Shown here: positions 45,345 through 64,000 of the stretch, in pieces
Position numbering within the stretch: position 1 is the first letter of the stretch
Layout of the letters: every line of letters starts with the position of its first letter
Assembly: GCF_004341235.1 (NCBI RefSeq)
Contig: NZ_SLUP01000002.1
Location: forward strand, 372,001 to 436,000
Direction of reading: 5' to 3'
DNA: 64,000 nucleotides
Source of the DNA: Mariniflexile fucanivorans
GTDB taxonomy: Bacteria > Bacteroidota > Bacteroidia > Flavobacteriales > Flavobacteriaceae
Program-made: the position numbers and the translations under genes
Notes under the pieces: generated by a model
Told to the model about the DNA's origin: nothing
Seen by the model: the letters and a program-made list of their open reading frames with translations, nothing else
The model's database searches: none

Positions 45345-45348
45345 AAAG

Positions 45349-45389
45349 CAAAATTAGCTAAAATATCAAGCAATTATTGCTTAATTTTG
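45349..45389. promoter_or_regulatory. Divergent promoter pair with a 15-bp operator palindrome (dinB-dnaE / S24 repressor)
   Basis: AAGCAATTATTGCTT (45368-45382) is a perfect 6-bp inverted repeat with a 3-nt centre. TAATTTTG is present on the plus strand (45382-45389) for the S24 gene and on the minus strand (45356-45349) for dinB. Both start codons lie 4-7 nt downstream of their -7 boxes. Binding by the S24 repressor would cover both promoters. Confidence 0.6.
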
Positions 45390-45396
45390 TAGCATT

Positions 45397-46170
45397 ATGA
45401 AAATGATCGCAAAAAATTTAAAACATTTAAGACATCTTAAAGGTGTTACCCAAGAAACCCTTGCTGATGATTTGCAAGTACTCCGTTCACGCATAAGTTC
45501 TTATGAAGAAGGACGCTCTACCCCCTCCATAGAACTCCTTATTCTTATATCTGATTATTTCAGACTCCCCATTGATATTTTATTGCGGAACGATTTAACC
45601 AAGGCCACAGACACCTCTTTTATGGAAGTTGGCAATCAAAGAATCTTGTTTCCCATAGCCGTGGATCATGATAACAATAATTTAATAGAAGTGGTACCCA
45701 TCAAGACTTCTGCCGGTTATTTGTTGGGTTACGACGATCCCGAATATATTGAGCAGTTAGAAAAAATAAAATTGCCTTTTTTACCAACGGGAAAACACAG
45801 AGCATTCCCCATAAAAGGAGATTCTATGTTACCTATGAAAAGTGGTTCCTATGTGGTGGGGCATTTTGTGGAAGACAGACATGATATTATTAGTGGCAAG
45901 ACTTACGTTCTTATAACCCTTAATGATGGTATGGTATACAAAAGGGTGTACAACCATATCAAAGAGAAAAATGCATTGCTATTGGTGTCTGACAACACCT
46001 CTTATAAACCCTATGAAATACCCATAAATGAAGTGTTGGAACTTTGGGAGTTTACTTGCAGTATCCATACCCAAGAATATGAAGAGCAGGATCTAAAAAT
46101 AAGCAGTATTGTTAATATGTTTAATGATTTAGGAGTGGCGTTAAAAGCCTTAGAAAAACTGCAACGCTAA
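45397..46170 (+). CDS. XRE-S24 (LexA/CI-like) repressor
   Basis: 257-aa regulator: an N-terminal XRE helix-turn-helix (LKHLRHLKGVTQETLADDLQ, about 8-27) and a C-terminal S24 peptidase domain with the nucleophile serine in GDSMLPMKSG (about 146-155) and the general-base lysine in MVYKRVYN (about 183-190). Self-cleavage under RecA control would derepress genes, as for LexA and CI. It is divergent from dinB-dnaE, with a palindromic operator between them. It is very likely the switch for this SOS cassette. Confidence 0.88.
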   Translation: MKMIAKNLKHLRHLKGVTQETLADDLQVLRSRISSYEEGRSTPSIELLILISDYFRLPIDILLRNDLTKATDTSFMEVGNQRILFPIAVDHDNNNLIEVVPIKTSAGYLLGYDDPEYIEQLEKIKLPFLPTGKHRAFPIKGDSMLPMKSGSYVVGHFVEDRHDIISGKTYVLITLNDGMVYKRVYNHIKEKNALLLVSDNTSYKPYEIPINEVLELWEFTCSIHTQEYEEQDLKISSIVNMFNDLGVALKALEKLQR

Positions 46171-46316: not shown

Positions 46317-47912
46317 CTAACTTTTAAATATGGATCTTATATCCTGATAAATACTATCAAAATTAGCTTTTAAATCTTCTTCAGAATAATTATGGGCTTC
46401 CATAGGCAACCGTCTATCAATTTTAGATAGTTTGAATTGCACTTTTTTATCCTCACCATCAGCAAAAGTAATAAATTCGCCTTCTTTTAATCTGAAAAAC
46501 ACATCAGCTCTTATCTTAGCGACTTCACGTTCGCCAGTTGTAATTCGTGTGTCAAAATTGAGGTTATGACCTCGATTAATACTTGTGGTTTCTTTCTTTA
46601 CAATTTCAAAAAAACGTTCATAATATTTCGCTGTATCTGGATCGTTTACCTTTCCAAAAAATTGATAAGACAGATTGCTTAAAATCGCTTTACTCGCCTT
46701 ATCTCCATACATCATATCATTTTGAATTTTATCTTGCATCACATAAATGGTGGCAATATTATAACTTCTTAAAGTAGCTGGAATACGGTGCATATTCAAT
46801 AACCTAATCGTGGGCGCTTCTTCCATCAGTAGAAATGAGTGATTTGAATTTCGAACACTCATTTGTTTTGTTACGGTATGTATGATTGTTGCAATAATGG
46901 GCGAATAAGCAGTTTCATATTTCGGATTGTTTACTACTGAAATAACTAAAGGTTTTTCTTGATTATTAATGTCGAGTGTAACATCATCTGCCGACAAAAC
47001 CATAAAAATACGTTGTGTACTTATTTTTTTTAGCGCATTGGCCAAGGTGCTTTTTACTCCCGCGGTTTGTCTATCGGAATCCTTGCCACTAATAAAAGCA
47101 TCTGCCATTGCGCGTGATGTCGTGTTGGAACTCAAAAAAGTAATCAAACTAGTTGTGTCTAAAGTTTGATAAAGAGCTATTAAATGTGGTAAGGTGCATA
47201 AATGTGGATAGGATGTTCGAAGTTTCCAAATTAAACCGCCAATAAGACCTTCTGCTGCGTCATTGAAGAATTTTGTTGTTCCTATACTTCCGGATTCTCT
47301 TTGCTCTAATAAATTCTCTATAAGCACTCTTGCAACCTCGTTTACACTTTCTTCATTGGTCATATATCTTGGTGCTATGGGGTTTACTCGGTCATAAATA
47401 GTATCGAATGAAATGACTTTAAAATCAATCTCATTTTTTTCGAATAATGGGTATGCCATTTCAGTAATTTCGAAATTTTTATAATCGTGAATAACTCCAG
47501 AAAATTTATGCTTACTGAAATGCTGAAGAAAATTATAAACCACACTTTCGGTTTTTCCGCTTCCTGCTGAACCAATTATTGAAGCACCTCGTTTAATGTT
47601 ATCTATTTTAAAATTTCCTCCCTTGACCTTAAAATGGACTTGGTGTTTATTATTGGAATCGAAAGTTGCATTCTCCTTATGAAGAAAGACATATAGAACT
47701 GTATTGATAAGCAATAGCGGACAGCCAATATATAATAGTTGTGTAAACCATTGGATTAAAAAGGCATTCCGTTTAAAAAGCAAAACTAAACAAATCAGAG
47801 TTAAAATTAGATTTATAAAAAAGGCATATCTTGCCATTTTGAATAGACTTAAAAACACCAAGCTCATTCCAAATAATAATCCAATTGTAAATGTAATACC
47901 TTGTATTTCCAT
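46317..47912 (-). CDS. Type IV coupling protein (VirD4/TraG-type)
   Basis: 531-aa T4CP. N-terminal membrane helices (residues 5-75) are followed by Walker A SIIGSAGSGKTESVVYNF (about 112-129) and Walker B HSFLLMEEAPTIRL (about 358-371). It couples the relaxosome to the T4SS. It is immediately downstream (1 bp) of the relaxase gene on the same strand, as usual in mobilisation regions. Confidence 0.9.
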   Translation of the reverse strand: MEIQGITFTIGLLFGMSLVFLSLFKMARYAFFINLILTLICLVLLFKRNAFLIQWFTQLLYIGCPLLLINTVLYVFLHKENATFDSNNKHQVHFKVKGGNFKIDNIKRGASIIGSAGSGKTESVVYNFLQHFSKHKFSGVIHDYKNFEITEMAYPLFEKNEIDFKVISFDTIYDRVNPIAPRYMTNEESVNEVARVLIENLLEQRESGSIGTTKFFNDAAEGLIGGLIWKLRTSYPHLCTLPHLIALYQTLDTTSLITFLSSNTTSRAMADAFISGKDSDRQTAGVKSTLANALKKISTQRIFMVLSADDVTLDINNQEKPLVISVVNNPKYETAYSPIIATIIHTVTKQMSVRNSNHSFLLMEEAPTIRLLNMHRIPATLRSYNIATIYVMQDKIQNDMMYGDKASKAILSNLSYQFFGKVNDPDTAKYYERFFEIVKKETTSINRGHNLNFDTRITTGEREVAKIRADVFFRLKEGEFITFADGEDKKVQFKLSKIDRRLPMEAHNYSEEDLKANFDSIYQDIRSIFKS

Positions 47913-47913
47913 C

Positions 47914-48942
47914 TTATATACCTATCGAACCAGATTTAATTGCTACTTCTACACCACGTTTTAGATACCTTATCGTTTTAAGTGCTAACTGCACTTGATT
48001 AGTTGGAATACTGGCTATAGGAACTCCAGATTTTGCGAGCATTTTAAAAGCTATCGCTTTTTCACTAGCTGGTAATCCCAACAATGTTGTGAAGTACAAT
48101 TTTGGATTTTTAATAAAATCTTTCTTCGACTTATAGGATTCTGCATAATTACGTTTGTAACCAAAAGTTTTGTCAAAGGTACTTTCAGCTTTTGTAAAAA
48201 ATGAATCCCTGTCAAATCCTCGTTTTACTAATTTTCCATGCATTACAACCTCTGAAGCTTTGTGTTTGGATCCTGGTGATAAGCTCACAGAATTAAAAGT
48301 ATCCTTTCTACTTACTATGATATGAATATGACTTTGGTTGCCTTCTTTTTTCATGCCTTGAACAATACGCTTTCCGTTTTGTTGGTGTGGTGCCTCAGCT
48401 TCAAGTTTGGATATTTGAAATTTCAATTTCTTAATATCCCCTTCCAATTGTCCATTCTCAATTTTTCGGATATCTTGTTTAAGCTGAAGTATTTTAGTGG
48501 CAAATGGTTGGTTTTCTCTTACTTGCTTATCTGTACCCTTAAATGTTCTTTGGTGCTCAATTTTAGCAAAGTATTTTATATCATCAACAGTTATCGGTTT
48601 GCCATTAATGTCTCTATTAAATGATGTTGCATAATCGTTCATGATTGCTCTAGTGTATTTTTTTAAATCTTCAGAATTGTTTTGTAATTTCCGTAGCTCA
48701 AATTGACTTGGGCTTACGGTAATTGAATAAAATTTTGGTTCTTTCTTTTTTAGTTTTGCAGTATTATCATCGATTTCTTTAACAACGTCTTTAGCTTCAA
48801 TTTCATCACCATATTGGTTAAAAAAATGCTCCTGACTCTCTTGCTCTAAACTTTGATTTTCTTTCTCTAGATACTCCACAAAATCGGTTGAACTTTGTGA
48901 ATAATCTCCACCTAATTTTTGAGCTGTAATTGAAATGTACAT
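47914..48942 (-). CDS. Relaxase/mobilisation nuclease (MobB/DUF5712-like)
   Basis: 342-aa relaxase. NQSHIHIIVSRKD at about residues 198-210 is the HxH metal-binding motif, and FYSITVSPSQFELRKLQ near residue 71-87 and PGSKHKASEVV are typical of the Bacteroidota DUF5712/MOBB-type family. It nicks oriT and stays bound to the transferred strand. It is preceded by bfmA (4 bp) and followed by the coupling protein. Confidence 0.85.
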   Translation of the reverse strand: MYISITAQKLGGDYSQSSTDFVEYLEKENQSLEQESQEHFFNQYGDEIEAKDVVKEIDDNTAKLKKKEPKFYSITVSPSQFELRKLQNNSEDLKKYTRAIMNDYATSFNRDINGKPITVDDIKYFAKIEHQRTFKGTDKQVRENQPFATKILQLKQDIRKIENGQLEGDIKKLKFQISKLEAEAPHQQNGKRIVQGMKKEGNQSHIHIIVSRKDTFNSVSLSPGSKHKASEVVMHGKLVKRGFDRDSFFTKAESTFDKTFGYKRNYAESYKSKKDFIKNPKLYFTTLLGLPASEKAIAFKMLAKSGVPIASIPTNQVQLALKTIRYLKRGVEVAIKSGSIGI

Positions 48943-51981: not shown

Positions 51982-53055
51982 TTATATCTCCATTTCTGAT
52001 AGAACATGATCCAATTTGTTGGGTAAATTTTTTAAATTTTTATCAAAAAAGATATAAATACCTAAATCATTACATTTTTCAATAATATCAGTTCTAGGTT
52101 TATATTTACATACTAAAATAGACTTACTTGTTACCCCACCGTAAAGACGGTTAACAGCTCGAATTTTATTAATATCACTTTGAATCACATTTCCAGATTT
52201 ACACTCTATAAAAATTAAATTCTTACCTGTATTTACAACAATATCAATTTCATTTTTCTTATTAGAATTATCCAGTTTTGAGAATAATTGAACATTTAGT
52301 TGAAGTTCGTAAATCTTTTTCCAATTTTTAATTGCGTCTGCAACAACCAATTCCCACCATATACCACAAAAAGCTATTTCGAATGCTTTACTATTTCTAA
52401 ATTTAATTTGATTTTGATTATCTTTTAAAGTAATCAATGGCTTATTCCAATTAAGCAGATTTTTTCCTTTTGAAAAACTGAAATTATTACATTTTCCTAA
52501 ATCTTTAATTTTGAACCTAACATCCTTCGCTGATTCTTTATATAGTTCAGTGCTTGAGATTCTTGAAATTTCTTTTGAAAAATTAAATTCATCTGTATTA
52601 AAATCAGTGATATTATTTGAAGAATAATTATTGTGCCCTGATAAAGTAATAAAAATCTTTAATTTAATTTTAGAATTAATCGCGGAATACGATTGTGTTC
52701 TAAAATCATATATTTTATGACCCTGATCAATGTAGAAAGAGCTAAGTGAAAAATCTTTGAATACATGTTGACATGCCAAAGCCATTACCTTCGTGCCACC
52801 TGTAAGATTTAGTTCAAAAGTATTTCCTTCATGTTCGATTAAAATCTCTTCAATTGAAGTCTTAATTTCTTCAAAATCATATGGCTTAACCTGTTTTGAA
52901 TGAAATACTATTTTTGGAAAAAGACTCTCTAGTATAGGAATATGATGTCTCGAATCCTTAGTGTAAATTAGATGAGCTATCTCAGGTTGTTTTTCAAATA
53001 AACCCCAAAATACTGGTGAAATCTGACCGCCTAGAATTGTTATTTGATGTGTCAT
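51982..53055 (-). CDS. CARF-PD-(D/E)XK nuclease, Card1/Can2-like (DUF1887-type)
   Basis: 357-aa two-domain protein. The N-terminal CARF (Rossmann-like) domain has its ligand-binding signature NLTGGTKVM at residues 83-91, with ILGGQISP (7-14) as the first strand-loop. The C-terminal PD-(D/E)XK nuclease has the conserved Glu in GIWWELVVAD (Glu235) and KNEIDIVV (Asp271), followed by IECKSG (Glu284, Lys286). This is the architecture of Card1/Can2, cA4-activated nucleases of type III CRISPR systems, and of stand-alone VC1899. There is no CRISPR locus here. Its ATG overlaps the upstream CARF gene's stop (TAATG). Last gene of the cassette. Confidence 0.85.
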   Translation of the reverse strand: MTHQITILGGQISPVFWGLFEKQPEIAHLIYTKDSRHHIPILESLFPKIVFHSKQVKPYDFEEIKTSIEEILIEHEGNTFELNLTGGTKVMALACQHVFKDFSLSSFYIDQGHKIYDFRTQSYSAINSKIKLKIFITLSGHNNYSSNNITDFNTDEFNFSKEISRISSTELYKESAKDVRFKIKDLGKCNNFSFSKGKNLLNWNKPLITLKDNQNQIKFRNSKAFEIAFCGIWWELVVADAIKNWKKIYELQLNVQLFSKLDNSNKKNEIDIVVNTGKNLIFIECKSGNVIQSDINKIRAVNRLYGGVTSKSILVCKYKPRTDIIEKCNDLGIYIFFDKNLKNLPNKLDHVLSEMEI

Positions 53056-53633
53056 TATTTTAGAAATATTTCTGGTTGGTTAGTGTCTGGATCGTAAACA
53101 ATATTTAGAACTTCAGTACCCGGTAGTGGTTTCCTTAATTCCTTTATATAACCTTCGAAATCTACATAAGTAATTTTACATCTATAATCTTTACCAAAAA
53201 TAGAAGCTGCTGCGACCATAGATTTTTTACCTCCGGTTATATCGATTGTAATTTTTTGTGAATCAATTTCATATAATATCTCTTTTAAAGACTTATAAAT
53301 AGTGTTAAAACTTGTATCTGAAATAGTAATCAAATTAAATTCGTTCTGTACAAACTCTTCAACCCGATTAATAACCTCTTCCTTATGTTCAGTTGTAATC
53401 ACATAATGCTTAATTGGCTTTATAGTATTTGCTGTTAAAATAATAGGTTCTGGTGAGAATCCGAGCATTGATATTAGTACCTCATCTTCATTAAAGAGTT
53501 TTTTATATTTACTTTGAAAACTTTCAATAATTTCAGGAAATAATTTATCGAAATAAAGCTTTTCAGCCAATTGAAAGTTTCCATGTTTAGCTAAAGCCAA
53601 CCATTCGTCTGTATATTTTAAATTAGATTCCAT
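53055..53633 (-). CDS. Stand-alone CARF-domain protein
   Basis: 192-aa protein. Residues 50-192 form a CARF-like Rossmann domain: EVLISMLGFSPEPIILTANT (first strand and loop), then KITIDITGGKKSMVAAASIF (residues 127-146), whose D-x-TGG-K-x-M motif is the CARF signature. The first 45 residues are helical (WLALAKHGNFQLAEKLYFDK). It has no effector domain, so it may be a sensor subunit, a ring nuclease that degrades the ligand, or a partner of the CARF nuclease encoded next to it. It lies 4 bp after the PLD gene. Confidence 0.75.
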   Translation of the reverse strand: MESNLKYTDEWLALAKHGNFQLAEKLYFDKLFPEIIESFQSKYKKLFNEDEVLISMLGFSPEPIILTANTIKPIKHYVITTEHKEEVINRVEEFVQNEFNLITISDTSFNTIYKSLKEILYEIDSQKITIDITGGKKSMVAAASIFGKDYRCKITYVDFEGYIKELRKPLPGTEVLNIVYDPDTNQPEIFLK

Positions 53634-53637
53634 TTAA

Positions 53638-55071
53638 TTATTCAAGTGTTATTTTAGCATTTTTGTATTTTAGGAGATACGACTCTAAATTGTAATCCCT
53701 TATCTTTATCTGATTTCCAATATTTAATATATTATTGTCAAAAGAAGCTTCATAAGAATATTTACCTATTTGTAATTGCGATATTTTATTATTTTTTACT
53801 TTATAATAACAGGGAATTTCATCAATCAGTTTTACAAGGTCACTGTTAGACTTATTCAACTTAATTGTTATATCATCTGGTAGCGGTTTAGGGTTAATTT
53901 CTTTTAATTTACAGTGATAAGTGTAATAATCAAAATAATTACTTTTATGTGGCGATATTGTGAAAACATAAGGAGCTGTTCTAATTTGCCATTCAATAAA
54001 AGCTTTCAAATTTATATTTTGATTATCTTCCAAAATAACACCAACTTCAAATCCATTTTTCAATCCATGATTGCCATCAATATTTGCGGTAAAAATCATA
54101 CTTTGCTCTGGAGTAATAATCCCTTTAGAATGATTAAAAACATCTCCATAAATTATACAACCCAAATTTGCTAACTGGGTGCATCCTTCTAAATGATCTG
54201 CTCTATAATTCATTCCTCTTGAAAAAATATAAACGCTAAACCCTTTTTTTAAAACAGACCTGAGAGCGCCAATAAATTCTGGTAAACTATTTAGGCCTAC
54301 AATATTATAAGTAGATAAAAACACATCTCCAGAAGAATTTTCAATAGTTTTAACTATTTCATCATATAAGGATTGATTATAATCCTCAAAAGTGAATTTT
54401 AATTTTGATTTAATCTCTAAAACTTTTGTGTTTTCAGAAATATTTTGTCGTCTTGAAACAACAAACTGTTTATTTAAATTTGCTGTTATGAACCTTGTAT
54501 ATTCTGTGCCATTTTGAAAAATTTCATCAAAAAGTCTATCCAAATGATTTAAGGCTTTTGTATCACTTATAAAAATTCCAGTTTCAGGATTACTGGTTAA
54601 AGATGGCGTAGTTATGTTGGCACTTGTTAATAATCCTTTTTCTTTATCTGAAATGATAAACTTTGCATGTGCTGTTCTCGTTGCTCTAACGTGTGCACCA
54701 TTTGAATAAAGTTTTTTAACTATATCTAAATGAACTTGATTGAAGTTTTCAATCATTTCCTCTTCAGACAATAGTGAAGTCGAAAATTTTGAATCATCTA
54801 ATTGGGTTAAAATAAAAACAGCAACATTCGAATTCTTTAAAACCCTCTCAATTTCTTCGTAAATTTCATGGTCTGTAATAATAAATGAACATAATTTTAT
54901 AGATGCCTTTGAGTTTCTTATTAACTCGATGATTTCTGTTTTTATTGAATTTTGACTAGGTAATGTGACAAAAAAATCATCTCGCTCTAACCATGGATTG
55001 TTATTTCTATCTTCATTCAGAACGAAATACCCACCTTTAAATTTACCCTTATCGTTTATTATATTATTCAT
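53638..55071 (-). CDS. Phospholipase-D-family protein with two HKD-like sites
   Basis: 477-aa protein with a duplicated PLD fold. The first site is complete: HAKFIISDKEKG (His135, Lys137, Asp142), then SAN (150-152). The second has His314 and Lys316 in NHSKGIITPEQS but no Asp at the expected position 321, then TAN (328-330). PLD-fold enzymes are phosphodiesterases and many defence members are nucleases; similar PLD proteins occur in DISARM (DrmC) and other systems. The C-terminal 100 residues are beta-rich without a known domain. It lies 4 bp after the winged-helix gene. Confidence 0.8.
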   Translation of the reverse strand: MNNIINDKGKFKGGYFVLNEDRNNNPWLERDDFFVTLPSQNSIKTEIIELIRNSKASIKLCSFIITDHEIYEEIERVLKNSNVAVFILTQLDDSKFSTSLLSEEEMIENFNQVHLDIVKKLYSNGAHVRATRTAHAKFIISDKEKGLLTSANITTPSLTSNPETGIFISDTKALNHLDRLFDEIFQNGTEYTRFITANLNKQFVVSRRQNISENTKVLEIKSKLKFTFEDYNQSLYDEIVKTIENSSGDVFLSTYNIVGLNSLPEFIGALRSVLKKGFSVYIFSRGMNYRADHLEGCTQLANLGCIIYGDVFNHSKGIITPEQSMIFTANIDGNHGLKNGFEVGVILEDNQNINLKAFIEWQIRTAPYVFTISPHKSNYFDYYTYHCKLKEINPKPLPDDITIKLNKSNSDLVKLIDEIPCYYKVKNNKISQLQIGKYSYEASFDNNILNIGNQIKIRDYNLESYLLKYKNAKITLE

Positions 55072-55075
55072 TGAT

Positions 55076-56395
55076 TTATTCTTCTATATGCATATGTTTG
55101 TTGATATCAATCTTTTCGAGTAACTCAAACTCTTCGAGTAAAACTAAAGCTTGTCTGTAGTTTTTATAACTAAACAATCTTTCAGTAATGTGACTTATTT
55201 CCAGCTTTTTATCTATAGCATCTTTCAAAAAATTATTTATTTCTAATAAATTATATACGAATGTTGAATCTGTTTTAAATGAAATAAAGACTATCCAAAT
55301 ACCATTATTAACTGATATTCTTTGATACTCTCTACCTCTCTCTAAATTCCTTAATAACTGACTTCTATTTGATTTTTGGTTCAGTAGTAATTCTTCAGTA
55401 ATATTTATTCCAATTTCAAACTTGGTATTGATAATCTCTTCTTCAGATGAAAACTTCACATTATAAAGCTTACTTAAAGCCAATTTTAAATCCTCACTAG
55501 TTATAAATTGAAGTTTATCTTCAACATTCTCCTTATCAATTTCTACCCAATTGGATACAAATGCGAATTTATCGTTCTCACTTTTATCCTTCCATGTATC
55601 AATTCTTAATTCAAGTTTTTGAATTTGATTTTTGATTTTTGATGCAAAAGACCTTATTTTTTCAAAATCGCCTACATTAGAAAAGCCATCAATAATCTCT
55701 CTATATGGCTTATTATCCTTAATCATTAAACCCACTAAAATAGGCATTGACATTTTGGTAAAATCAATCGTTTCAATTACCTCTAGACCTAATGGTATTG
55801 CCCAAAACTCCCTATCATTTTGATGAATATTAAATATGTTTTCAAGGACTTTTTCTTTATTCAATGGTTCATGAACAATATTGGGTTTGAATGGCTTGTA
55901 CGAAATTGTATCACCTTTTGAATTCGTGTAATATGTAAATTCGTTTTCATTAAAAAAAGATTTTAGATACTTAGTAGAATATAGTTCATTGCTTAAAGGC
56001 TTAAAGTCTATACCATCCAAATAAAAATTATGCTGTCGCTTTTGAAATCTCTTCTCTGTAGCATTAATCAAAATATCTTTTCCTCTCTCGGTAACAGTAA
56101 ATTTATTTTCTCCTTCAATCAAATCTTCTGATTTCATTTGCTGAATTCTCAATTCAATACCTCTTTTTTGAACACTTAAAAAATTTGCAATATCAAAAGC
56201 AGACATGCTATTGTTTAAAAGAATACATTTAATAATTGCTCTATCTAATTTTTCTAATGGGTCTGGTGTACTATCTAAAATGGTTGCATGAATACAATAA
56301 ATAGGATATTGCAGGTAAGCAATTGATTTTAATTCAATGCCCTCTTCTTTTTTAACTTGATAATACCTTTCTATGTCTAAATTAAATAATGCCAT
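55076..56395 (-). CDS. Winged-helix-containing protein of unknown function
   Basis: 439-aa protein I cannot name. Residues 45-110 form a winged helix (RAIIKCILLNNSMSAFDIAN, then FLSVQKRGIELRIQQMKSED and FTVTERGKDIL). The rest (120-439) is a mixed domain with a conserved-looking EFWAIPLGLEVIETIDF (about 196-212) and a helical C-terminus. It shares one base with the helicase stop (TAATG) and is 4 bp from the PLD gene, so it is a core cassette component. It could be a DNA-binding adaptor for the helicase or the operon regulator. Confidence 0.6.
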   Translation of the reverse strand: MALFNLDIERYYQVKKEEGIELKSIAYLQYPIYCIHATILDSTPDPLEKLDRAIIKCILLNNSMSAFDIANFLSVQKRGIELRIQQMKSEDLIEGENKFTVTERGKDILINATEKRFQKRQHNFYLDGIDFKPLSNELYSTKYLKSFFNENEFTYYTNSKGDTISYKPFKPNIVHEPLNKEKVLENIFNIHQNDREFWAIPLGLEVIETIDFTKMSMPILVGLMIKDNKPYREIIDGFSNVGDFEKIRSFASKIKNQIQKLELRIDTWKDKSENDKFAFVSNWVEIDKENVEDKLQFITSEDLKLALSKLYNVKFSSEEEIINTKFEIGINITEELLLNQKSNRSQLLRNLERGREYQRISVNNGIWIVFISFKTDSTFVYNLLEINNFLKDAIDKKLEISHITERLFSYKNYRQALVLLEEFELLEKIDINKHMHIEE

Positions 56396-59300
56396 TAACC
56401 TCTTATTAATTTAAGTGATACTTGTTTCTTTGATTTATTAACTTCATCGATTGAAACATAAAGCACCATTCCTTTTTTATATTCTTCTTTAAAATTTCTT
56501 CTCGCACTAAATGGTAAGTTTGAGTAATGTAAAAGCCCTGTTATTCCTTCTACAATTTCCACAAACAAACCATAATCAACTATATTCTCAACTTTACCAA
56601 TAAACTTTTCTCCTCTTTTAAAACTTATGTTGTCCCATGGGTTTGGTTGAGTTTGCTTCAATCCGAGCGATACCTGCTTCTTTTTTAAGTCGTAATTTAA
56701 AATCTTAACTTTAACATCCTCATTTATTTCAACCACATCACTAGGTTGATTTACTTTAGACCAACTTAAATCTGATATATAAACAAGACCATCAAGATTA
56801 CCTAATGAAACAAACGCACCATAACTCTCTAACCTCTTAATTCTTCCTTCAATGATACTCCCTTTCTTATTTTTTTCCATAAAAATTTCAAACGGTGATT
56901 TTAAATCAGTGTAATCGGTTAATTCAACAAAATTTCCGATTTTATCAATTTTACTTAAATCCACTAATCTTGAAAATAATCCTGTATAGTCAAACAAAGT
57001 ATCATAGTGGCTTCTTGGGTCTGTTAGTGTCTCTGAATTACCAACTAGAATTAATTTCTTTTTAGCTCGTGAAAAAGCAACATTTAATCTTCTTGCATCA
57101 TCTAGAAAACCAACTTTTTTGTTTCGTTGATCTGGTGATGCAGCTCTGGTAAAGCTGAAAACGATTACATCAAACTCCATTCCTTGAAAAGAGTCTAATG
57201 TAGAAACTTCTATTAAATGTGAGTTATTATCATGTTCTTTCAGGAATTTTTTAATATGCTTTACTTGTGATTTATATGGTGCCACAACAGCAAAATCATT
57301 TGATGTAAGCCCTGATTCAAGAAGTTTAGGTATAACTAAATTACTAATACAATACGCTTCGGAGTCGTTTTGAGCAGAAAAACCATCAAAACTTTCATAA
57401 GAGTTTTGTGCACTTGATGTATTTATGAAAATCACTTCTTTTTCAAAAGGACTTGGTAGCTTTAAAGTATTTCCAAAAGTATGCTCTCCCATTTTAACTT
57501 TACCTTCATAAAAAGAATCTGAAATAAATTCTCCAATGTGAGGGTGCATTCTATGCTGGTAATTTAGTAATTCCTTATTTTCTACGGGAAAAAGTTTGTT
57601 TTTAATTCTCGTCACAAGAAATTCAAAAAATGAAGTTTTTAAGGCATGTTGAATATCTTCTTTCAAAAAATTCTTGCCATATTTGGATAAAGGAAAACTT
57701 GTAGCCTCTTTTTCATCAAGTAAGCTTCCATCGATATACGGTGGCAATTGCATTTGGTCACCCACAAGAATTACTTTTTTTGCCATTGAGATTGCAGCTA
57801 GAGTTTCCGAAATATTAGCCTTGCCTGCTTCATCAATGATAACAGTATCAAATTTTAAATTATATTCATTTAATTCTCTATCCGTTCTAACACCAATACA
57901 AGTTGCAAAAGCCACATCAATGGATTTATATAAAAGTGGTTTGATTAATATCTCTTTTTCATGAGATAAGTTTTTTCTCCATTCAATTAATAAGCTTTTC
58001 AACCCACTTAAGAATGTGAATGATGTTTTAGACAGCATTTCTAAAAATTCATAATTCTTATTGAGTAATACCTCTTTGAAATTTTCTCTATAATTAGCAC
58101 TATTTTCTGATATAATTTTCTTAAGAGCAGGTCTTACCGCAATAAACTCAACATCTCCACCTTGTGTTAATAGGTAATCTATTTGATTAATGTTTGTTAT
58201 AATTAATTTTTCAAAATCTTCCGAATAAACTTCGATCAAATTATCGATTTGATATTGTCTTAAATCTTCCTTTATCCTTTGAGCATTTCCAAGTCTTATA
58301 CAGGTTATGGCTTTATTTCTTGACACTTTCTCAAGTACATTATCAACTGCAATATGGGTTTGACTAGCAACAAGAATTTTTTCTCCTTTAGATATTAATT
58401 GCTCAACTACCTCTGCTATAACCGTAGTTTTACCGGTTCCTGGGGGGCCTTGTATCAAAAAAACATTGTTATTCCCAACTGCTTTTTTAACCGCCTTAAC
58501 TTGATTATTATTTGGCTGTTTCTTTTCTGTTTCCTCCAGAAGTTTATTTATATAAGATAAATTAATTTCTTCAGGCGGTTTTATTTTATCAGGTCTTACT
58601 AGCAATGATTCAATATGGTCTAAATTTAATTTCTTATCAAAAAAATCTCGAATAACTTCTCTTTGAACTTGATATTGACGAAGGGAAACCTTTGGCTCTA
58701 TGTAAAATCCTTTATCCAAAATATCTAGAGGTTTATTGAGGTATTTTAAGTGTAATTTGGTTTTGTCATTAGATGCTTCAACTATGGCATCACAGAAAAT
58801 AACTAATTCTTTATCTCTGTTTTCTCTATGAGACATTTCTTCCGTTCTAATAGCTACCATCTGATTTTCATCACCATTTTCTACAAATAAATCATCTAAA
58901 TCAAAATGTATCTCAATAGCAGTTTCAGTAATTGTATTAGGTATTACCTTATAACTACCTACAAAAACCCTAGCCGTTTCATTACCCTTTCTTTCAATAT
59001 CCAACTGATATTCTAAAAATTTATCGAAAATAGAAATGGAAAGTCCTTCTTCTCTTAAAATAGCTCCCGACTCCTTTTTTAATCTATTCAGAGCTTCAAA
59101 TGCCAATACTTTATTTTGAATTTTTAAAAAATTATCTATTTGACTGGACTCCAATGGTTTTGGATCTAAAGGCGATAATACTCTAACTTTACTATTTAGT
59201 AAAAAAGTTCCTTTATTTAAATTCCTCTCCTTATTTAATGAGTCCTTTTTCTTTGTTCTCTCTAAAGACAAATTAGTCACTAAAAAACTAATTTCATCAT

Positions 59301-60606
59301 AATCTGTGGTCACTAAACCTGACAGATAAACCTTTTCATTAAACAAAATCCAATTATTCTTAATACTTTCTTCACTTTTATCATACCAAGTATTTAATCT
59401 AACCCAATACTTTTGCTCTTCTAAAAACTTTAAGGCTTCTTTTTCAGTCGAATTTTCACCCATAAAAGGTAGTAAGGCATTTTTAAAATCATTCTCCCAT
59501 GCTTTTGTATTAAAATCAAAACTCACAATTAATGTTTTCTTAAGACTTAAAGCACTTGAAAACAATTTGTTGTCTTCTTCAAACCACTTTAAAACATTTT
59601 CACGGTCTTCTTTGTTTGCAACGGAATAATAAATTGATCTTTTGAACGTAGCTACCGATTTTAAATCCAAATCTTGAGTTTGAAAATCCTCATTATCAGT
59701 TGCAATTTCATCATCTAATTCAACTTCTTCATGAATTCCTAATCTTAAAAACTGATTGACTTCATCCCTACCATTTAAAATAAGATTTAAGGAATCACCA
59801 ATTTTAAAAACCGACCTTTGATCAGAAGTTATATTAATAATACCAAAAAGTTCTTCTTTATATTTTACAATTAGCTTGTTAATTAATATTTCCTCAATGA
59901 CACCATTTAGTTTTTGGTTAATCTTGAGATTACTCCATATTCTTTTTTCGCTTGGCCGTTCATAAAAATGTTTTCTACTTACAATAACATTCTTATTTAA
60001 TTCATTCTCGACCACTACAACTTTTATTCTATACCCTACTTTTAGATCAGAAAATATTTTTTGAGAATTGAAAATATTCCAAGATAAATTTTGAAGAGGA
60101 AGAATTGCTTTTTGTTTATTAAAGAAATCAACAATAATCAATGAAGGATATATTATTTCAATAATATCGGTTTCGATTACGGTACCTCTTTCGATCACTG
60201 CAGCTGTTTCTACCTCATCAATATTATCGCTATTATGTTTTAAACTATTAGCATAATTCACTAATTCCTTATAATTCTCTATTGAAATTTTTGCATTCGG
60301 ACTAGTTTCAATTTCTACATTAATTTCATCGAAATATTTTATTGCTTGATGCAAAGAAATATTTAATTCCCTTAAAACTTTATTTAACCTGATAAAATTA
60401 TATTGAGGTTTATTGATAGACTTTAAATTAACCGCTCTATCAAAAGTTTGTTCTGTTCCTACAATAGGCTTTTTCACAAGTTCAAAGTAGACAAAATCTC
60501 CAATGTTAAAATCTTTAAATTCTTTAAATATATAAGAGACTCTTTTATCGAGATCATATTCGATAAAACCCAAATTTGAACTTATTTTAATTATTTCGCC
60601 TTCCAT
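56395..60606 (-). CDS. UPF1-like SF1 helicase with N- and C-terminal S1/OB domains
   Basis: 1403-aa protein (an in-frame GTG at 60627 would add 7 residues; I prefer the ATG at 60606, which begins MEGEIIKISSNLGFIEYD, an OB start). OB/S1-like strands occupy about residues 1-60 and 140-290. The SF1 core follows: GPPGTGKTT, DEAGK, GDQMQLPP, NYQHRMHP, TLDSFQGMEFDVIVFSF and RRLNVAFSRAKKKL, the UPF1/DNA2-type set. Two classical S1 domains end the protein (KGSIIEGRIKRLESYGAFVS and RGEKFIGKVENIVDYGLFVE, last 155 residues). RNA or RNA-DNA hybrid recognition is inferred from S1. First gene of the cassette, behind its own candidate promoter. Confidence 0.87.
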   Translation of the reverse strand: MEGEIIKISSNLGFIEYDLDKRVSYIFKEFKDFNIGDFVYFELVKKPIVGTEQTFDRAVNLKSINKPQYNFIRLNKVLRELNISLHQAIKYFDEINVEIETSPNAKISIENYKELVNYANSLKHNSDNIDEVETAAVIERGTVIETDIIEIIYPSLIIVDFFNKQKAILPLQNLSWNIFNSQKIFSDLKVGYRIKVVVVENELNKNVIVSRKHFYERPSEKRIWSNLKINQKLNGVIEEILINKLIVKYKEELFGIINITSDQRSVFKIGDSLNLILNGRDEVNQFLRLGIHEEVELDDEIATDNEDFQTQDLDLKSVATFKRSIYYSVANKEDRENVLKWFEEDNKLFSSALSLKKTLIVSFDFNTKAWENDFKNALLPFMGENSTEKEALKFLEEQKYWVRLNTWYDKSEESIKNNWILFNEKVYLSGLVTTDYDEISFLVTNLSLERTKKKDSLNKERNLNKGTFLLNSKVRVLSPLDPKPLESSQIDNFLKIQNKVLAFEALNRLKKESGAILREEGLSISIFDKFLEYQLDIERKGNETARVFVGSYKVIPNTITETAIEIHFDLDDLFVENGDENQMVAIRTEEMSHRENRDKELVIFCDAIVEASNDKTKLHLKYLNKPLDILDKGFYIEPKVSLRQYQVQREVIRDFFDKKLNLDHIESLLVRPDKIKPPEEINLSYINKLLEETEKKQPNNNQVKAVKKAVGNNNVFLIQGPPGTGKTTVIAEVVEQLISKGEKILVASQTHIAVDNVLEKVSRNKAITCIRLGNAQRIKEDLRQYQIDNLIEVYSEDFEKLIITNINQIDYLLTQGGDVEFIAVRPALKKIISENSANYRENFKEVLLNKNYEFLEMLSKTSFTFLSGLKSLLIEWRKNLSHEKEILIKPLLYKSIDVAFATCIGVRTDRELNEYNLKFDTVIIDEAGKANISETLAAISMAKKVILVGDQMQLPPYIDGSLLDEKEATSFPLSKYGKNFLKEDIQHALKTSFFEFLVTRIKNKLFPVENKELLNYQHRMHPHIGEFISDSFYEGKVKMGEHTFGNTLKLPSPFEKEVIFINTSSAQNSYESFDGFSAQNDSEAYCISNLVIPKLLESGLTSNDFAVVAPYKSQVKHIKKFLKEHDNNSHLIEVSTLDSFQGMEFDVIVFSFTRAASPDQRNKKVGFLDDARRLNVAFSRAKKKLILVGNSETLTDPRSHYDTLFDYTGLFSRLVDLSKIDKIGNFVELTDYTDLKSPFEIFMEKNKKGSIIEGRIKRLESYGAFVSLGNLDGLVYISDLSWSKVNQPSDVVEINEDVKVKILNYDLKKKQVSLGLKQTQPNPWDNISFKRGEKFIGKVENIVDYGLFVEIVEGITGLLHYSNLPFSARRNFKEEYKKGMVLYVSIDEVNKSKKQVSLKLIRG

Positions 60607-60627
60607 AAATTGATAAAAAAAAGACAC

Positions 60628-60697: not shown

Positions 60698-62710
60698 TTA
60701 CAATTTCAAATACGTCACCTCACAAGACTTACACTTTCTTCTGGTTTGATCCAATTCAGCAACATTAAAACGCCCCTCTATCTTTTCAAAAATGTCTAAG
60801 CCTCTGCCAAGAGTAATTTTCCAACCATTATCTGCTGCAATAAAACGGTCATGATGTTGTTCTAACCTATAAGTCAAATTGATTCCTAATTCTAAGACAC
60901 TTGAAATCAACTCTTCAAAATAGCCTATTGATTCATTGATGTATTCTTCATTATTCCACGATATAACTTCAAGATTAATTTCTTGCTCAGGACCTTTATT
61001 ATTACCTAGCATGACACAAAACTCCAATAAGTTATTGAACTGATATGGCATCCGGATATATGGGTCTTGTATTGTAATATTCTCCGCTGTTTTTAGATAC
61101 TCAGCAAATAGTTTTTTATAGGATATACCTGTTTGATTGTCTTTTAAAATAACCTGATGCGGTTTTAACTGTATAATTGGTTTTACAACTTCTGAATGCC
61201 CATCCTCAATTTTTGAGTCTTCTTGCACCTCAATTGCGGCCTTATAATTTAAATTTTCTAAAGTTTCAGGAAACACCTCTTTTCCAGAAGAATGTATGGT
61301 ATATTTAAACTCTACAGGTTCCGACCTGAAGGTTTCATCAATGATGTATAATTGATCTTTTACGCGTTTCCTACCTTCGATACTAAAGTCCAATAATTCA
61401 AAAATTTCTTCGTCTGTTAGTATTTGGTTAGGATAAATAATTTTCACCAAACCAGAAAATGTTTTTCTAATGGCCGTTTTATCTCTCGTTGTTAATGATC
61501 CATCTAAAGACACTTTATCATCTAATATTGCTGAGAAATCAGACTTTCGCATTTCACGAAGCAATTCTGCTAAATAATCCACGATAAAACCATATTCCGA
61601 CGAGAAAACAGATGTTTTTAAAATGCGAACCTCCCAACCAGGAATATACATATGCATTCTATCTAAAAAAGCACCTTTTAAATAGCCTTCTGGAATGGAT
61701 TCAAACAAATGAGAGTTTTTCAACATATAAGGCACATTGTGCTTTGTGTTCCCAATAAAAGCCATGGAAGCCGTTGCTTGATAGGTTTCTTTACCACGGT
61801 TAAAACTTTGGTTAGCCATATAGTTTTGCATGATTTTTACCAAATCTCCGTCGGTTCGCTTCCCTCCTTTTTCTTGTTCAAATTCATCCAAGGCAACTAC
61901 GTCCCAATAACCCACTAAACCAATAGCTCCTTTTCCTGTATTATTAACAAAAAGTCTAGCCTTTGAAACATCACCACCTGAAACTAAGACACCATGTGGT
62001 GACAATTCAGAAAATATATGTGACTTCCCTGTACCTTTTGGTCCAAGTTCTATAAAGTTATAGTTATTCTCAACGTGAGGAATTAAGCGTGATAACTGAA
62101 TAAACTTATCGCGTTTATTAAAGTATTCTGGATTCAATCCAATACTATGCATTAATAAATCCAGCCATTCATCAGTTGTAAATTCTTTTCTTAAACCTAC
62201 ATATTCTGATAAGTTTATATTAGCTACTTGAATAGGTTTTAAATCTATTATCATCCATCTCATATTTATATCATCAGCATGAGAATAGCCAACAGTTAGA
62301 ATACACCAGACTCCACCACCACTTAATAATTTAGGATTATCCAATACCATCTGATCTGCAATAGGGACTTTGCGTATACCTAGACTAGCAAAATCCGCCT
62401 CATACATATTTGCTTGCGCATCGTTTAAGGTCACATTTATCTTATCTATAATTTTATAGCTTCCGGTATTTCGTATTCTTGCCTTTACGAGTTCCGCATC
62501 CGACCTATGTACATAATTATTCTGTATCACATTTCTAACCGTCTCTACACCTGTATTTATGATTTCATCATCATCAATAGCACAATGTTGACCTAATAAA
62601 TATTCTAATACATAAGCAGGAACAGGATTGTTACCCTTTACCAATGCTGTTAAATCTTTTCTAACAACCTTCCCTTCAAAGTGCTTTAATATTTTCTCTT
62701 TTAATTCCAT
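60698..62710 (-). CDS. brxL: BREX protein BrxL with a C-terminal MIT_C-like domain
   Basis: 670-aa AAA+ protein of the BREX phage-defence system. The N-terminal domain (residues 1-180) precedes Walker A LGPKGTGKSHIF (about 222-233), Walker B DVVALDEFEQE (about 270-280) and an arginine-finger region FLDRMHMYIPGW. Residues about 505-670 do not look like a Lon-type protease end. They read TGISYKKLFAEYL, IQDPYIRMPYQFNNLLEFC and HDRFIAADNGWKITLGRGLD, which closely match the MIT_C (PLD-fold) domain of eukaryotic MITD1 as I remember it. A CKSC pair is at the end. It is 2 bp from pglZ. Confidence 0.85.
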   Translation of the reverse strand: MELKEKILKHFEGKVVRKDLTALVKGNNPVPAYVLEYLLGQHCAIDDDEIINTGVETVRNVIQNNYVHRSDAELVKARIRNTGSYKIIDKINVTLNDAQANMYEADFASLGIRKVPIADQMVLDNPKLLSGGGVWCILTVGYSHADDINMRWMIIDLKPIQVANINLSEYVGLRKEFTTDEWLDLLMHSIGLNPEYFNKRDKFIQLSRLIPHVENNYNFIELGPKGTGKSHIFSELSPHGVLVSGGDVSKARLFVNNTGKGAIGLVGYWDVVALDEFEQEKGGKRTDGDLVKIMQNYMANQSFNRGKETYQATASMAFIGNTKHNVPYMLKNSHLFESIPEGYLKGAFLDRMHMYIPGWEVRILKTSVFSSEYGFIVDYLAELLREMRKSDFSAILDDKVSLDGSLTTRDKTAIRKTFSGLVKIIYPNQILTDEEIFELLDFSIEGRKRVKDQLYIIDETFRSEPVEFKYTIHSSGKEVFPETLENLNYKAAIEVQEDSKIEDGHSEVVKPIIQLKPHQVILKDNQTGISYKKLFAEYLKTAENITIQDPYIRMPYQFNNLLEFCVMLGNNKGPEQEINLEVISWNNEEYINESIGYFEELISSVLELGINLTYRLEQHHDRFIAADNGWKITLGRGLDIFEKIEGRFNVAELDQTRRKCKSCEVTYLKL

Positions 62711-62712
62711 AA

Positions 62713-64000
62713 TTAAAATTCATCTTTTTCCATTAATGTATTCACTTTAATTAAATCATTTGTGCCTAATGGATTTAATCTTGATTTGTCATCTTTATGG
62801 AAGCCTTTGAGGTAACAAAAGCTTGCATTAGATCCTAATGTATTCAATGACAATATGATTTCGAAAATGCGTTCTTTGGGGTTGCCAGATGTAGAATTGA
62901 AATGCACTTCTACTTCTTTTGAATATAAATCTCCTTTTTCGGAATATAATGCAAATAGCACATCTGCACTTTTCAATTCATTGTCTACTGGTTGATCTTG
63001 TAATAAGGTAATCTTAATACTTCCTGATGCTATTCTATCGTTTTGATCTATTCGGTTAAAGGTTACTAAATCACTTTTCTCTTTTTTAGTATCCTTATAA
63101 AACTTAACCACAGGAACCAATAACTCTTGTAAACTTGCACCACCATGAACAAATTGTACTCCTATATTGCCTTGTTTTCTATATCTGTTAATTGCTCTTG
63201 GAATCGCTATTTTTAAATCTGTATCTATATTTGTTGTGTTTTTCATTTCTAGACCATAGCCATCCAATTCCCCTTCAAAATCATCTGCAACAACAAAGCG
63301 TGAATGATCTCTACTGTAACCTATAGGTTTTGGTAATTGTTCTCTACTTGATTCAGTAAGTGTTGTATTATTATATAGAAATCCATGGTCCGACGTTACT
63401 AAAACATGATAGACATTCCAACCATAAATTTTCATGATTAGATTCTTAATGTCTTCTATGGCTTTAGCAGAAACATTAAAAGTTTCGTGCTCCGTTCTTC
63501 TAGTATCACCAATGGAATCCATCCAATCATGATATATATAAAGTACTCTATTATCTTTAAAAAAGTCCCGTCCTTCATCTCGACTAAGTTTCATAGCTTG
63601 TGAATAGTCTAAACAAGCACTTTTAGGTTCACTGTTTTGTAATATTTTAGCTCTGTTTGTGCTTATTGTGGATTTACCATCAATTTTGAACACCAAATCT
63701 TTATCTCCTTTTTCAACACTTATGCCTTTATTTGGCAATAAATTAGACATTCCTAAATTGGTATAGGATGGTAAGGAAGCTAAATAAGGTTCAATTTCCA
63801 CCAAATTCTTACTATCTGCCATTAGCTCATCATACAATTCGTAACCCAATTCATATCTAAATGCATCCGAAATTATAACCACAACTTTAGCACTAAAATC
63901 TTGCAAGTAGTTTTTATGAAAATCAAATTGTTTAGGAACTTTAATATCGTGAAAATTAAAGTTTGTCTCTTGTAATATTTTCTGCCACTCTGTATTTAAT
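62713..64000 (-). CDS. pglZ: BREX alkaline-phosphatase-like protein PglZ (5' end outside the window)
   Basis: Only the C-terminal part is present. The frame is open to the right edge (LNTEWQKILQETNFNFHDIK before the first internal start-like codon at 63906), so the true start lies beyond 64000. VVVIISDAFRYELGYEL carries the nucleophile-region Asp and LVTSDHGFLYN the metal-binding Asp-His of the PglZ alkaline-phosphatase fold. The downstream order pglZ-brxL is that of type I BREX, so brxA/B/C and pglX are expected to the right. Confidence 0.87.
   Translation of the reverse strand, partial: LNTEWQKILQETNFNFHDIKVPKQFDFHKNYLQDFSAKVVVIISDAFRYELGYELYDELMADSKNLVEIEPYLASLPSYTNLGMSNLLPNKGISVEKGDKDLVFKIDGKSTISTNRAKILQNSEPKSACLDYSQAMKLSRDEGRDFFKDNRVLYIYHDWMDSIGDTRRTEHETFNVSAKAIEDIKNLIMKIYGWNVYHVLVTSDHGFLYNNTTLTESSREQLPKPIGYSRDHSRFVVADDFEGELDGYGLEMKNTTNIDTDLKIAIPRAINRYRKQGNIGVQFVHGGASLQELLVPVVKFYKDTKKEKSDLVTFNRIDQNDRIASGSIKITLLQDQPVDNELKSADVLFALYSEKGDLYSKEVEVHFNSTSGNPKERIFEIILSLNTLGSNASFCYLKGFHKDDKSRLNPLGTNDLIKVNTLMEKDEF

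What the first reader, a model, noticed from the sequence alone, without database searches (positions are those of the whole stretch)
60698..62710. BrxL whose C-terminus is an MIT_C (MITD1-like) phospholipase-D-fold domain
The last 165 residues show the full MIT_C pattern: GISYKKLFAEYL, then IQDPYIRMPYQFNNLLEFC, then HDRFIAADNGWKITLGRGLD. In eukaryotic MITD1 this domain is a PLD-like fold that binds membrane lipids during cytokinesis. Classical BrxL ends in a Lon-like protease fold. A BREX effector with an MIT_C end would imply a different output, such as nucleic-acid or membrane binding. Notably the cassette next door also encodes a PLD-fold protein.
Basis: partly seen in the sequence, partly recalled or inferred. 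Interest (0 to 1): 0.68.

Follow-up and report, generated by a model that had tools for sequence, protein, structure and literature searches.

The report
BrxL with MITD1-like PLD-fold tail
A bacterial phage-defence protein ends in the same fold as the human cell-division protein MITD1; such tails on this protein are already known as likely DNA-cutting domains, and the new points are the close kinship with the human protein and signs that the tail was gained more than once.

Summary
Residues 528-669 of the 670-residue BrxL (60698-62710, minus strand) match Pfam MIT_C over its whole length (E 1.4e-37). The predicted domain (pLDDT 96) superposes on human MITD1 (Z 22.5, 1.8 A over 153 residues). 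Residues 1-488 are ordinary BrxL (Z 40.2 to 8emh), in a full Type-1 BREX operon.

It is not a new kind. A 2026 survey counts 1,030 of 2,913 Type-1 BREX taxa whose BrxL carries a C-terminal 'HKD-endoDNase' with an HRD motif instead of the Lon-like domain (PMC12839542). The window protein has that motif (H620, R622, D627).

Most likely it is a nuclease-type effector, not a membrane tether: H620, R622, R636, D639 and R658 are identical in 79 of 79 aligned domains, and 4 of 6 non-BrxL MIT_C genes found sit beside restriction or defence genes.

Not met in the survey text I read: the MITD1 relation; a BrxL subclade nearer to human MITD1 (44-49% identity, joint clade 100/99) than the window's domain (37%); and signs that BrxL gained MIT_C more than once, once on a Type-4-like core.

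The parts
60698..62710 (-). brxL gene, 670 aa, BrxL_N + AAA+ + MIT_C; last BREX gene of a Type-1 BREX operon
62285..62686 (-). BrxL_N domain, residues 9-142
   Evidence: Pfam PF20442 1.3e-42
61319..62257 (-). BrxL AAA+ ATPase domain, residues 152-464 (GPKGTGKS at 223-230; VVALDEF at 271-277)
   Evidence: Pfam PF13337 1.1e-120; strings located
61175..61219 (-). low-confidence linker, residues 498-512, between BrxL core and MIT_C
   Evidence: pLDDT under 50 in full-length model; stretch 471-523 has the highest dN of the three parts compared
60704..61129 (-). MIT_C (MITD1-like PLD-fold) domain, residues 528-669
60830..60853 (-). HxR(x)4D motif, residues 620-627 (H620, R622, D627)
   Evidence: H and R 79 of 79; position 627 D 57, N 21, S 1 of 79
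60794..60808 (-). GRGLD motif, residues 635-639 (R636, D639)
   Evidence: R636 and D639 79 of 79
62713..64000 (-). pglZ (runs beyond the window; 852 aa in the genome), Type-1A PglZ, directly upstream of brxL
   Evidence: TIGR02687 364.9 bits against cut-off 270.35

Best explanation
This is a BREX Type-1 BrxL in which the non-proteolytic Lon-like C-terminal domain is replaced by an MIT_C domain: a single-motif PLD-fold domain related to that of human MITD1. The most likely working: the BrxL AAA+ core loads on invading DNA as a ring, driven by ATP (published for Acinetobacter BrxL, PMC10164562). The C-terminal domains pair, within or between rings, and each pair forms an HKD-type phosphodiesterase site (H620, R622, D627/D639, R636, R658) that nicks or cuts that DNA, next to the PglZ nuclease of the same operon. 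Shown here: domain identity, fold (as a prediction), conservation, operon, family context. Inferred: catalysis, dimeric active site, DNA as substrate.
For: Domain and fold. H620, R622, G629, R636, D639 and R658 are identical in 79 of 79 aligned bacterial MIT_C domains; H620, R622, D639 and R658 lie outside the search patterns used to fetch most loci, and they hold in 12 of 12 rows that are the window or were found by HMM. The window has the full HxR(x)4D. Fold neighbours after MITD1 include the restriction enzymes SauUSI (Z 9.7) and NgoAVII R-protein (8.9) and NucT (8.5). Of six non-BrxL MIT_C genes looked at, four have restriction or defence neighbours: L053 beside an AAA_5 (McrB-like by my reading) and a McrC gene, L038 beside homologues of both by my reading; L154, a weak match, beside a ResIII plus endonuclease-domain protein; L153 in an island with DruE-like and SNF2 helicases and an Mrr-like PDC-S02 protein. 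In 15 comparisons dN is 0.12-0.34 in the domain, 0.30-0.82 in the linker and 0.04-0.21 in the core, so the domain is under selection. A published survey reaches the same nuclease reading for this BrxL class. BREX operon.
Against: No activity is shown for any MIT_C domain in what I read. The HKD lysine is arginine throughout, and the Asp position is Asn or Ser in 22 of 79. The weak member L020, not in that alignment, keeps HDRQVLTD but not GRGLD. Human MITD1 keeps H, R, R, D and R too, with Asn at the Asp position (alignment), and is described as a membrane binder (PMC6015221 passages), so conservation alone does not prove catalysis. Two of six non-BrxL MIT_C genes have no restriction neighbours that I saw: a dynamin-type GTPase fusion, which suits a membrane role (L118), and an IF2_N fusion (L119). 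The nuclease Z values (8.5-9.7) are only a little above the usual best background of 7-8 given by the tool, and lipid enzymes score alike (phosphatidylserine synthase 9.0; phospholipases D).
Confidence: 0.62

Rival explanations
1. The MIT_C domain is a non-catalytic pairing module: it replaces the Lon-like domain in joining two BrxL rings tail to tail, and any phosphate-binding pocket only grips DNA.
For: In Acinetobacter BrxL the Lon-like domain has no obvious protease motif and mediates tail-to-tail dimerisation of rings (PMC10164562 passages). The Asp of the HKD motif is not fixed (22 of 79 differ) and Lys is always Arg. MITD1 is described as a dimer (recalled from the 2012 abstract, not read here).
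Against: Five polar residues of an HKD-like site (H620, R622, R636, D639, R658) are 79 of 79 identical; the domain also occurs on proteins without an AAA+ part (L053, L038, L119).
Confidence: 0.22
2. The domain binds the inner membrane, as MITD1's does in cytokinesis, and tethers BREX to the site of phage DNA entry or acts on lipids.
For: Close structural match to a membrane-binding domain (membrane role from PMC6015221 passages). A bacterial dynamin-GTPase-MIT_C fusion exists (L118). Lipid enzymes are among the fold neighbours.
Against: BREX acts on DNA; 4 of 6 other MIT_C genes found have restriction or defence neighbours; the window domain lies in the main BrxL branch away from MITD1 (37% identity). 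No test of lipid binding was possible.
Confidence: 0.11
3. Vestigial or decorative tail: a domain left over from a fusion, without function.
For: None direct.
Against: Lower dN in the domain than in the linker in 15 of 15 comparisons; invariant residues; more than one change of the label on the BrxL tree.
Confidence: 0.05

Closest known systems
BrxL with C-terminal HKD-endoDNase in Type-1 BREX (Rakesh & Krishnan 2026, PMC12839542; they credit Li et al. 2025 on Menshen, not held here)
   Same: N-terminal BrxL domains plus AAA+, Lon-like domain replaced by a PLD/HKD-fold domain with an HRD motif, Type-1 BREX with PglZ; 1,030 of 2,913 taxa
   Different: The survey's main text has no occurrence of 'MITD1' or of the whole word 'MIT'; it calls such fusions specific to Type-1 BREX, whereas L161 carries one on a Type-4-like BrxL core
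Human MITD1 C-terminal domain (PDB 4a5z, 2ymb; Pfam MIT_C)
   Same: Same fold (Z 22.5), 37% identity to the window domain, same H/R/R/D/R residues
   Different: MITD1 has an N-terminal MIT domain and is not joined to a BrxL AAA+ core; Asn in place of D627; role in ESCRT-III cytokinesis
Acinetobacter BrxL (PDB 8emc/8emh)
   Same: Residues 1-488 superpose, Z 40.2, 43% identity
   Different: C-terminal domain is Lon-like in Acinetobacter BrxL (PMC10164562 passages), MIT_C here
PLD-fold restriction nucleases SauUSI and NgoAVII R-protein
   Same: PLD fold, Z 9.7 and 8.9; nuclease part of ATP-dependent DNA restriction (class recalled)
   Different: 9-13% identity over the superposition; not found as MIT_C relatives by sequence

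Membership tests
Pfam MIT_C (PF16565) | Full-length profile match above the gathering score | tested here: met
   129 bits against 25, 1-142 of 142
Pfam MIT_C (PF16565) | MITD1-type PLD fold | tested here: met
   Predicted model Z 22.5, 1.8 A, 153 residues to 4a5z
MITD1 proper | N-terminal MIT domain that binds ESCRT-III | tested here: not met
   Only BrxL_N, BrxL_ATPase and MIT_C in Pfam at E up to 1
BrxL | BrxL_N and BrxL AAA+ domains in a BREX operon beside PglZ | tested here: met
Classical BrxL (TIGR02653, Lon-related) | Lon-like C-terminal domain | tested here: not met
   TIGR02653 matches 2-480 only, 542.6 bits against cut-off 628.25; PDB BrxL aligns only to 2-474; residues 516-670 model as MITD1 fold
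BrxL-HKD variant of Type-1 BREX (PMC12839542) | HRD motif in C-terminal PLD-fold domain, Type-1 BREX, PglZ present | tested here: met
   H620, R622, D627; PglZ type A, PglX, BrxC over cut-off, BrxB and BrxA by PADLOC
PLD/HKD phosphodiesterases | HxK(x)4D | tested here: inconclusive
   H fixed, K is R in 79 of 79, D is D in 57 of 79
PLD/HKD phosphodiesterases | Phosphodiesterase or nuclease activity | not testable with these tools
   needs biochemistry

The most novel reading that the evidence does not exclude
The membrane-binding domain of the animal cytokinesis protein MITD1 is a domesticated bacterial anti-phage effector domain. Bacteria use MIT_C as a movable restriction-nuclease module, joined to BrxL apparently more than once and also placed beside McrBC, Type III-like and other restriction genes. 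One BrxL subclade (Hymenobacter, Thioflavicoccus, G201 and IMG/VR contigs; 44-49% identical to human MITD1, joint clade 100/99) is its nearest kin found here, so MITD1's domain was gained from bacteria and may still carry a working or recently lost phosphodiesterase site.
Probability: 0.4. Interest if true: 0.78.

Novelty: new member of a known kind. Interest (0 to 1): 0.45.

Why it matters
It gives BREX, long without a clear nuclease, a second candidate cutting subunit that can be tested by one point mutation. It also ties a human ESCRT-III partner to a bacterial defence domain: the MITD1 PLD domain keeps the same H, R, R, D and R as the bacterial domains, so whether MITD1 is or was an enzyme becomes a direct question. 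Repeated replacement of the BrxL C-terminus would show that this position of the ring is an interchangeable effector slot.

Tried and rejected
Lon-like end: sequence profiles stop at residue about 480, so rejected. Kinship of the neighbouring PLD protein with MIT_C: hhalign probability 0.3% against a single sequence, no support. MIT_C in phage records: no match in 50,697. The downstream cassette (helicase, 439-aa protein, PLD, two CARF proteins) as a fixed partner of this BrxL: among 93 loci (L025-L117, many cut short) only L032 has the helicase, the 439-aa protein and a 131-residue stretch of the PLD protein; L034 and L050 gave partial helicase hits; so it looks like a separate module. One clade of all BrxL-MIT_C: rejected by the AU test (p 4e-8 with 20 rows; 3e-8 with 16 rows), but that rests on one long-branch row, L015; without it p is 0.069 (0.30 in the smaller tree), so a third event is likely, not shown. 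The tool notes that three changes can also mean one gain and two losses. Direction of transfer between bacteria and eukaryotes: not decided; with the distant L020 as outgroup, bacterial monophyly is not rejected (p 0.48). Reading L153 as DISARM: my note says so; PADLOC gives DruE-like and DpdE/DrmD-like helicases, so I call it only a defence island. The Trichomonas 'MIT_C in actin' remark (PMC9222396, passages) was not followed. A broken MIT_C stretch beside an IS21 element on a Sphingobium plasmid (L121) was set aside.

Structure search absences: in the domain search no Lon-like or BrxL C-terminal structure was among the 50 rows shown; that alone proves nothing.

Literature: MIT_C with BrxL, MITD1 with phospholipase D and bacterial, a broad MITD1/evolution search, BrxL with HKD, MITD1 with PLD fold, 'MIT_C domain', MITD1 with BREX, MITD1 with prokaryotic, MITD1 with horizontal gene transfer: no title or abstract start in these lists links MITD1 to BREX or to bacterial defence. 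The library is open-access only; I read passages of five papers (PMC10164562, PMC6015221, PMC9477494, PMC3789837, PMC9222396) and sections of one (PMC12839542).

Full report
What is there. The gene at 60698-62710 (minus strand) is an intact 670-aa BrxL. It is the last BREX gene of a complete Type-1 BREX operon that runs past the window end. In the genome (L002) the order is WYL regulator, DUF2130 protein, BrxA, BrxB, BrxC, PglX, a GmrSD_N/HEC-05 protein, PglZ type A, BrxL. PglX, BrxC and PglZ pass their NCBIfam cut-offs (1,059, 700 and 365 bits against 500, 400 and 270); BrxA and BrxB are called by PADLOC and by no NCBIfam model at 1e-5. A tyrosine integrase lies beyond.

The C-terminus. Pfam gives BrxL_N, BrxL_ATPase and then MIT_C over its full length at 528-669 (E 1.4e-37). 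Against the PDB, solved BrxL covers only 2-474 and human MITD1 covers 518-664. The domain alone was modelled from 66 sequences at pLDDT 96.3; MITD1 superposes at Z 22.5, rmsd 1.8 over 153 residues (Foldseek E 6e-18). The full-length model (pLDDT 78.8, 32 sequences, weak in parts of the AAA+ domain and at 498-512) aligns to BrxL 8emh over 1-488 at Z 40.2 and to MITD1 over 516-670 at Z 22.3.

How common. In 296 genomes of the window's phylum, MIT_C is found in 22 (19 over the cut-off); 17 of the 20 matches over the cut-off lie in open frames of 673-709 aa, BrxL length. BrxL_ATPase is found in 28 of 296 (27 over the cut-off), 38 matches; 30 loci were returned, and 28 ORFs in them hit my BrxL profile: 16 end in MIT_C, 8 look Lon-like by length and lack of MIT_C (one of them, L122, is 60% identical over its length to plasmid BrxL annotated as Lon-related), 2 are short, 2 are cut by the locus end. 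In 72,556 plasmids there are 25 records with a match; 18 of the 25 rows are annotated brxL or Lon protease, in organisms of Bacteroidota, Pseudomonadota and Actinomycetota. No match in 50,697 phage records.

Known already. Rakesh and Krishnan (PMC12839542; I read its BrxL section, part 1 of 2 of the auxiliary-effector section, the effector section, the outline and passages) report 1,030 of 2,913 Type-1 BREX taxa with an HKD-endoDNase in place of the Lon-like domain, with Lys to Arg (HRD), and propose that it degrades invading DNA. They credit an earlier paper (Li et al. 2025) that is not held. The PADLOC model PDLC02508 (698 positions) spans the whole L161 protein including MIT_C, so the form is in that library too; two plasmid proteins are labelled 'MIT C-terminal domain-containing' in their records. 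In the main text of PMC12839542 'MITD1' and the whole word 'MIT' do not occur; its supplements were not read.

Site. In 79 aligned bacterial domains D549, Q557, H620, R622, G629, R636, D639 and R658 are 79 of 79; R553 is 78 of 79; position 627, the Asp of HxK(x)4D, is D 57, N 21, S 1. The rows had been thinned at 85% identity (113 to 77), then the window's double was dropped and the window, L118 and L119 added; the weak L020, which keeps HDRQVLTD but lacks GRGLD, was not in. Most loci came from two peptide patterns that contain D549, R553, Q557, G629 and R636, so those counts are inflated; H620, R622, D639 and R658 are outside the patterns. In the 12 rows that are the window or HMM-found, the same residues are 12 of 12 and position 627 is D 10, N 2. 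Human MITD1 has H, R, R, D and R and Asn at 627 (alignment). So the published 'HRD' holds for the window, but the D is not universal. Recalled, not tested: PLD-family enzymes such as TDP1 and BfiI work without that Asp. dN against the window in 15 relatives is 0.04-0.21 in the core, 0.12-0.34 in MIT_C and 0.30-0.82 in the linker, with dS mostly saturated: the domain is under selection, though in 14 of 15 less strongly than the core.

Other bacterial MIT_C proteins. Six were looked at. L053 (Christiangramia, 307 aa): beside a McrC gene (Pfam 8.8e-66) and an AAA_5 protein that I read as McrB-like. L038 (Gillisia MAG, 310 aa): beside homologues of both by my reading of the sequence (PADLOC gives a Type II restriction model for the ATPase and nothing for the McrC-like protein). 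L017/L153 (G157): a 1,065-aa MIT_C plus Sel1-repeat protein in a defence island with DruE-like and SNF2 helicases and an Mrr-like PDC-S02 protein. L020/L154 (G123): a weak MIT_C (1.3e-7) beside a ResIII plus RE_endonuc protein and an AAA_15/AAA_21 ATPase. L118 (Thiodictyon plasmid): Dynamin_N plus MIT_C, no defence neighbours seen. L119 (Paenarthrobacter plasmid): IF2_N plus MIT_C, no clear defence context. Four favour DNA; the dynamin fusion favours membranes.

More than one gain. A tree of the BrxL core (without MIT_C) from 32 rows needs three changes of the MIT_C label, and its starred branches force three; one clade of all 20 MIT_C rows is rejected (p 4e-8), without L015 p is 0.069. One gain with two losses would also fit three changes. 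The three groups are the main clade with the window; a clade of Thioflavicoccus, Hymenobacter, G201 and an IMG/VR contig next to a Lon-like BrxL (98/96); and L015. L015's core groups with two short BrxL (100/99). One of these, in L163, lies in an operon with a PAPS-reductase-like protein and a PglZ that matches the BREX-4 model just under its cut-off (137.5 of 140 bits), as in Type-4 BREX; the operon of the other (L162) gave no type-specific match. L015 itself (TIGR02688 432 bits against 243 for TIGR02653) lies in an operon with an Eco57I-type methylase, an SspB/DUF4007-like protein, an SspC-like ATPase, a weak PglZ, BrxL-MIT_C and an AIPR protein; none of the six scanned genes is a PAPS reductase. 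I therefore call the core Type-4-like, not the system Type 4. If right, it departs from the survey's statement that such fusions are specific to Type-1 BREX. L015 is a long branch.

MITD1. The G201 BrxL domain is 47% identical to human MITD1 over 143 residues (E 4e-45); the window's is 37%. Global identities to human are 44-49% in the subclade and at most 40.5% in the other BrxL domains. In a 35-row tree without the long non-BrxL rows, human MITD1, Hymenobacter L120, G201 L003 and Thioflavicoccus L186 form one clade at 100/99, with the bootstrap marked as rough; the 80-row tree agrees (99/86, with a long-branch warning). In G201 the gene stands after PglX and BrxC (both over cut-off) and a PglZ-like gene (under cut-off), with two small ORFs of BrxB and BrxA size that I did not scan. 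Ten IMG/VR loci encode relatives at 77-100% (one of them is the contig of L109). A 2013 paper lists MITD1 among conserved metazoan innovations (PMC3789837, one passage). Together these suggest, without showing it, that animals took the domain from bacteria; the root and direction are open (p 0.48) and only one eukaryotic sequence was available.

Mechanism. [quoted passage not shown] I infer that MIT_C takes that place and that pairing of single HKD-type domains builds the active site. Nuclease action is the best-supported output, at 0.62; a non-catalytic pairing role is the main rival.

Verdict. True observation, already published kind, with a new angle in the MITD1 kinship, the repeated gain and the Type-4-like core.

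Noticed in passing
51982-60627 (minus strand): Cassette directly after brxL: 1,410-aa S1-domain plus SF1 (AAA_11/12, MkoA-like) helicase, 439-aa protein with weak winged-helix matches, 477-aa DrmC-like PLD protein, CARF-like 192-aa protein, Card1-like CARF plus PD-(D/E)XK 357-aa protein; helicase, 439-aa protein and a stretch of the PLD protein recur in the same order in L032 (Ulvibacter).
   Followed up: partly
46317-48942 (minus strand) and L002:18595-19797: T4SS coupling-type ATPase and a DUF5712 protein on one side and a tyrosine integrase on the other side of the BREX region: it may lie in an integrative mobilisable element.
   Followed up: partly
L002:5273-7129: GmrSD_N/HEC-05 protein placed between pglX and pglZ inside the BREX operon.
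   Followed up: partly
L161:98-14926 (G140 contig 10): BREX/Ssp-like hybrid operon (Eco57I-type methylase, SspB- and SspC-like, weak PglZ, BrxL with Type-4-like core and MIT_C, AIPR).
   Followed up: partly
L093:4453-6843: Kaistella BrxL with an extra tail after MIT_C that weakly resembles an ASCH domain (E 0.0009, under the cut-off).
   Followed up: partly
L118:5637-8480: Thiodictyon plasmid protein joining a dynamin-type GTPase to MIT_C, two domains linked with membranes in animals.
   Followed up: partly
L053:1503-8426 and L038:5527-10274: MIT_C proteins with an N-terminal part without a Pfam match, beside McrB-like and McrC-type genes: a possible McrBC variant with its own PLD-fold subunit.
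   Followed up: partly
41176-46170: DnaE-type polymerase, Y-family polymerase and an XRE/S24 regulator: an SOS mutagenesis-type cassette.
   Followed up: partly
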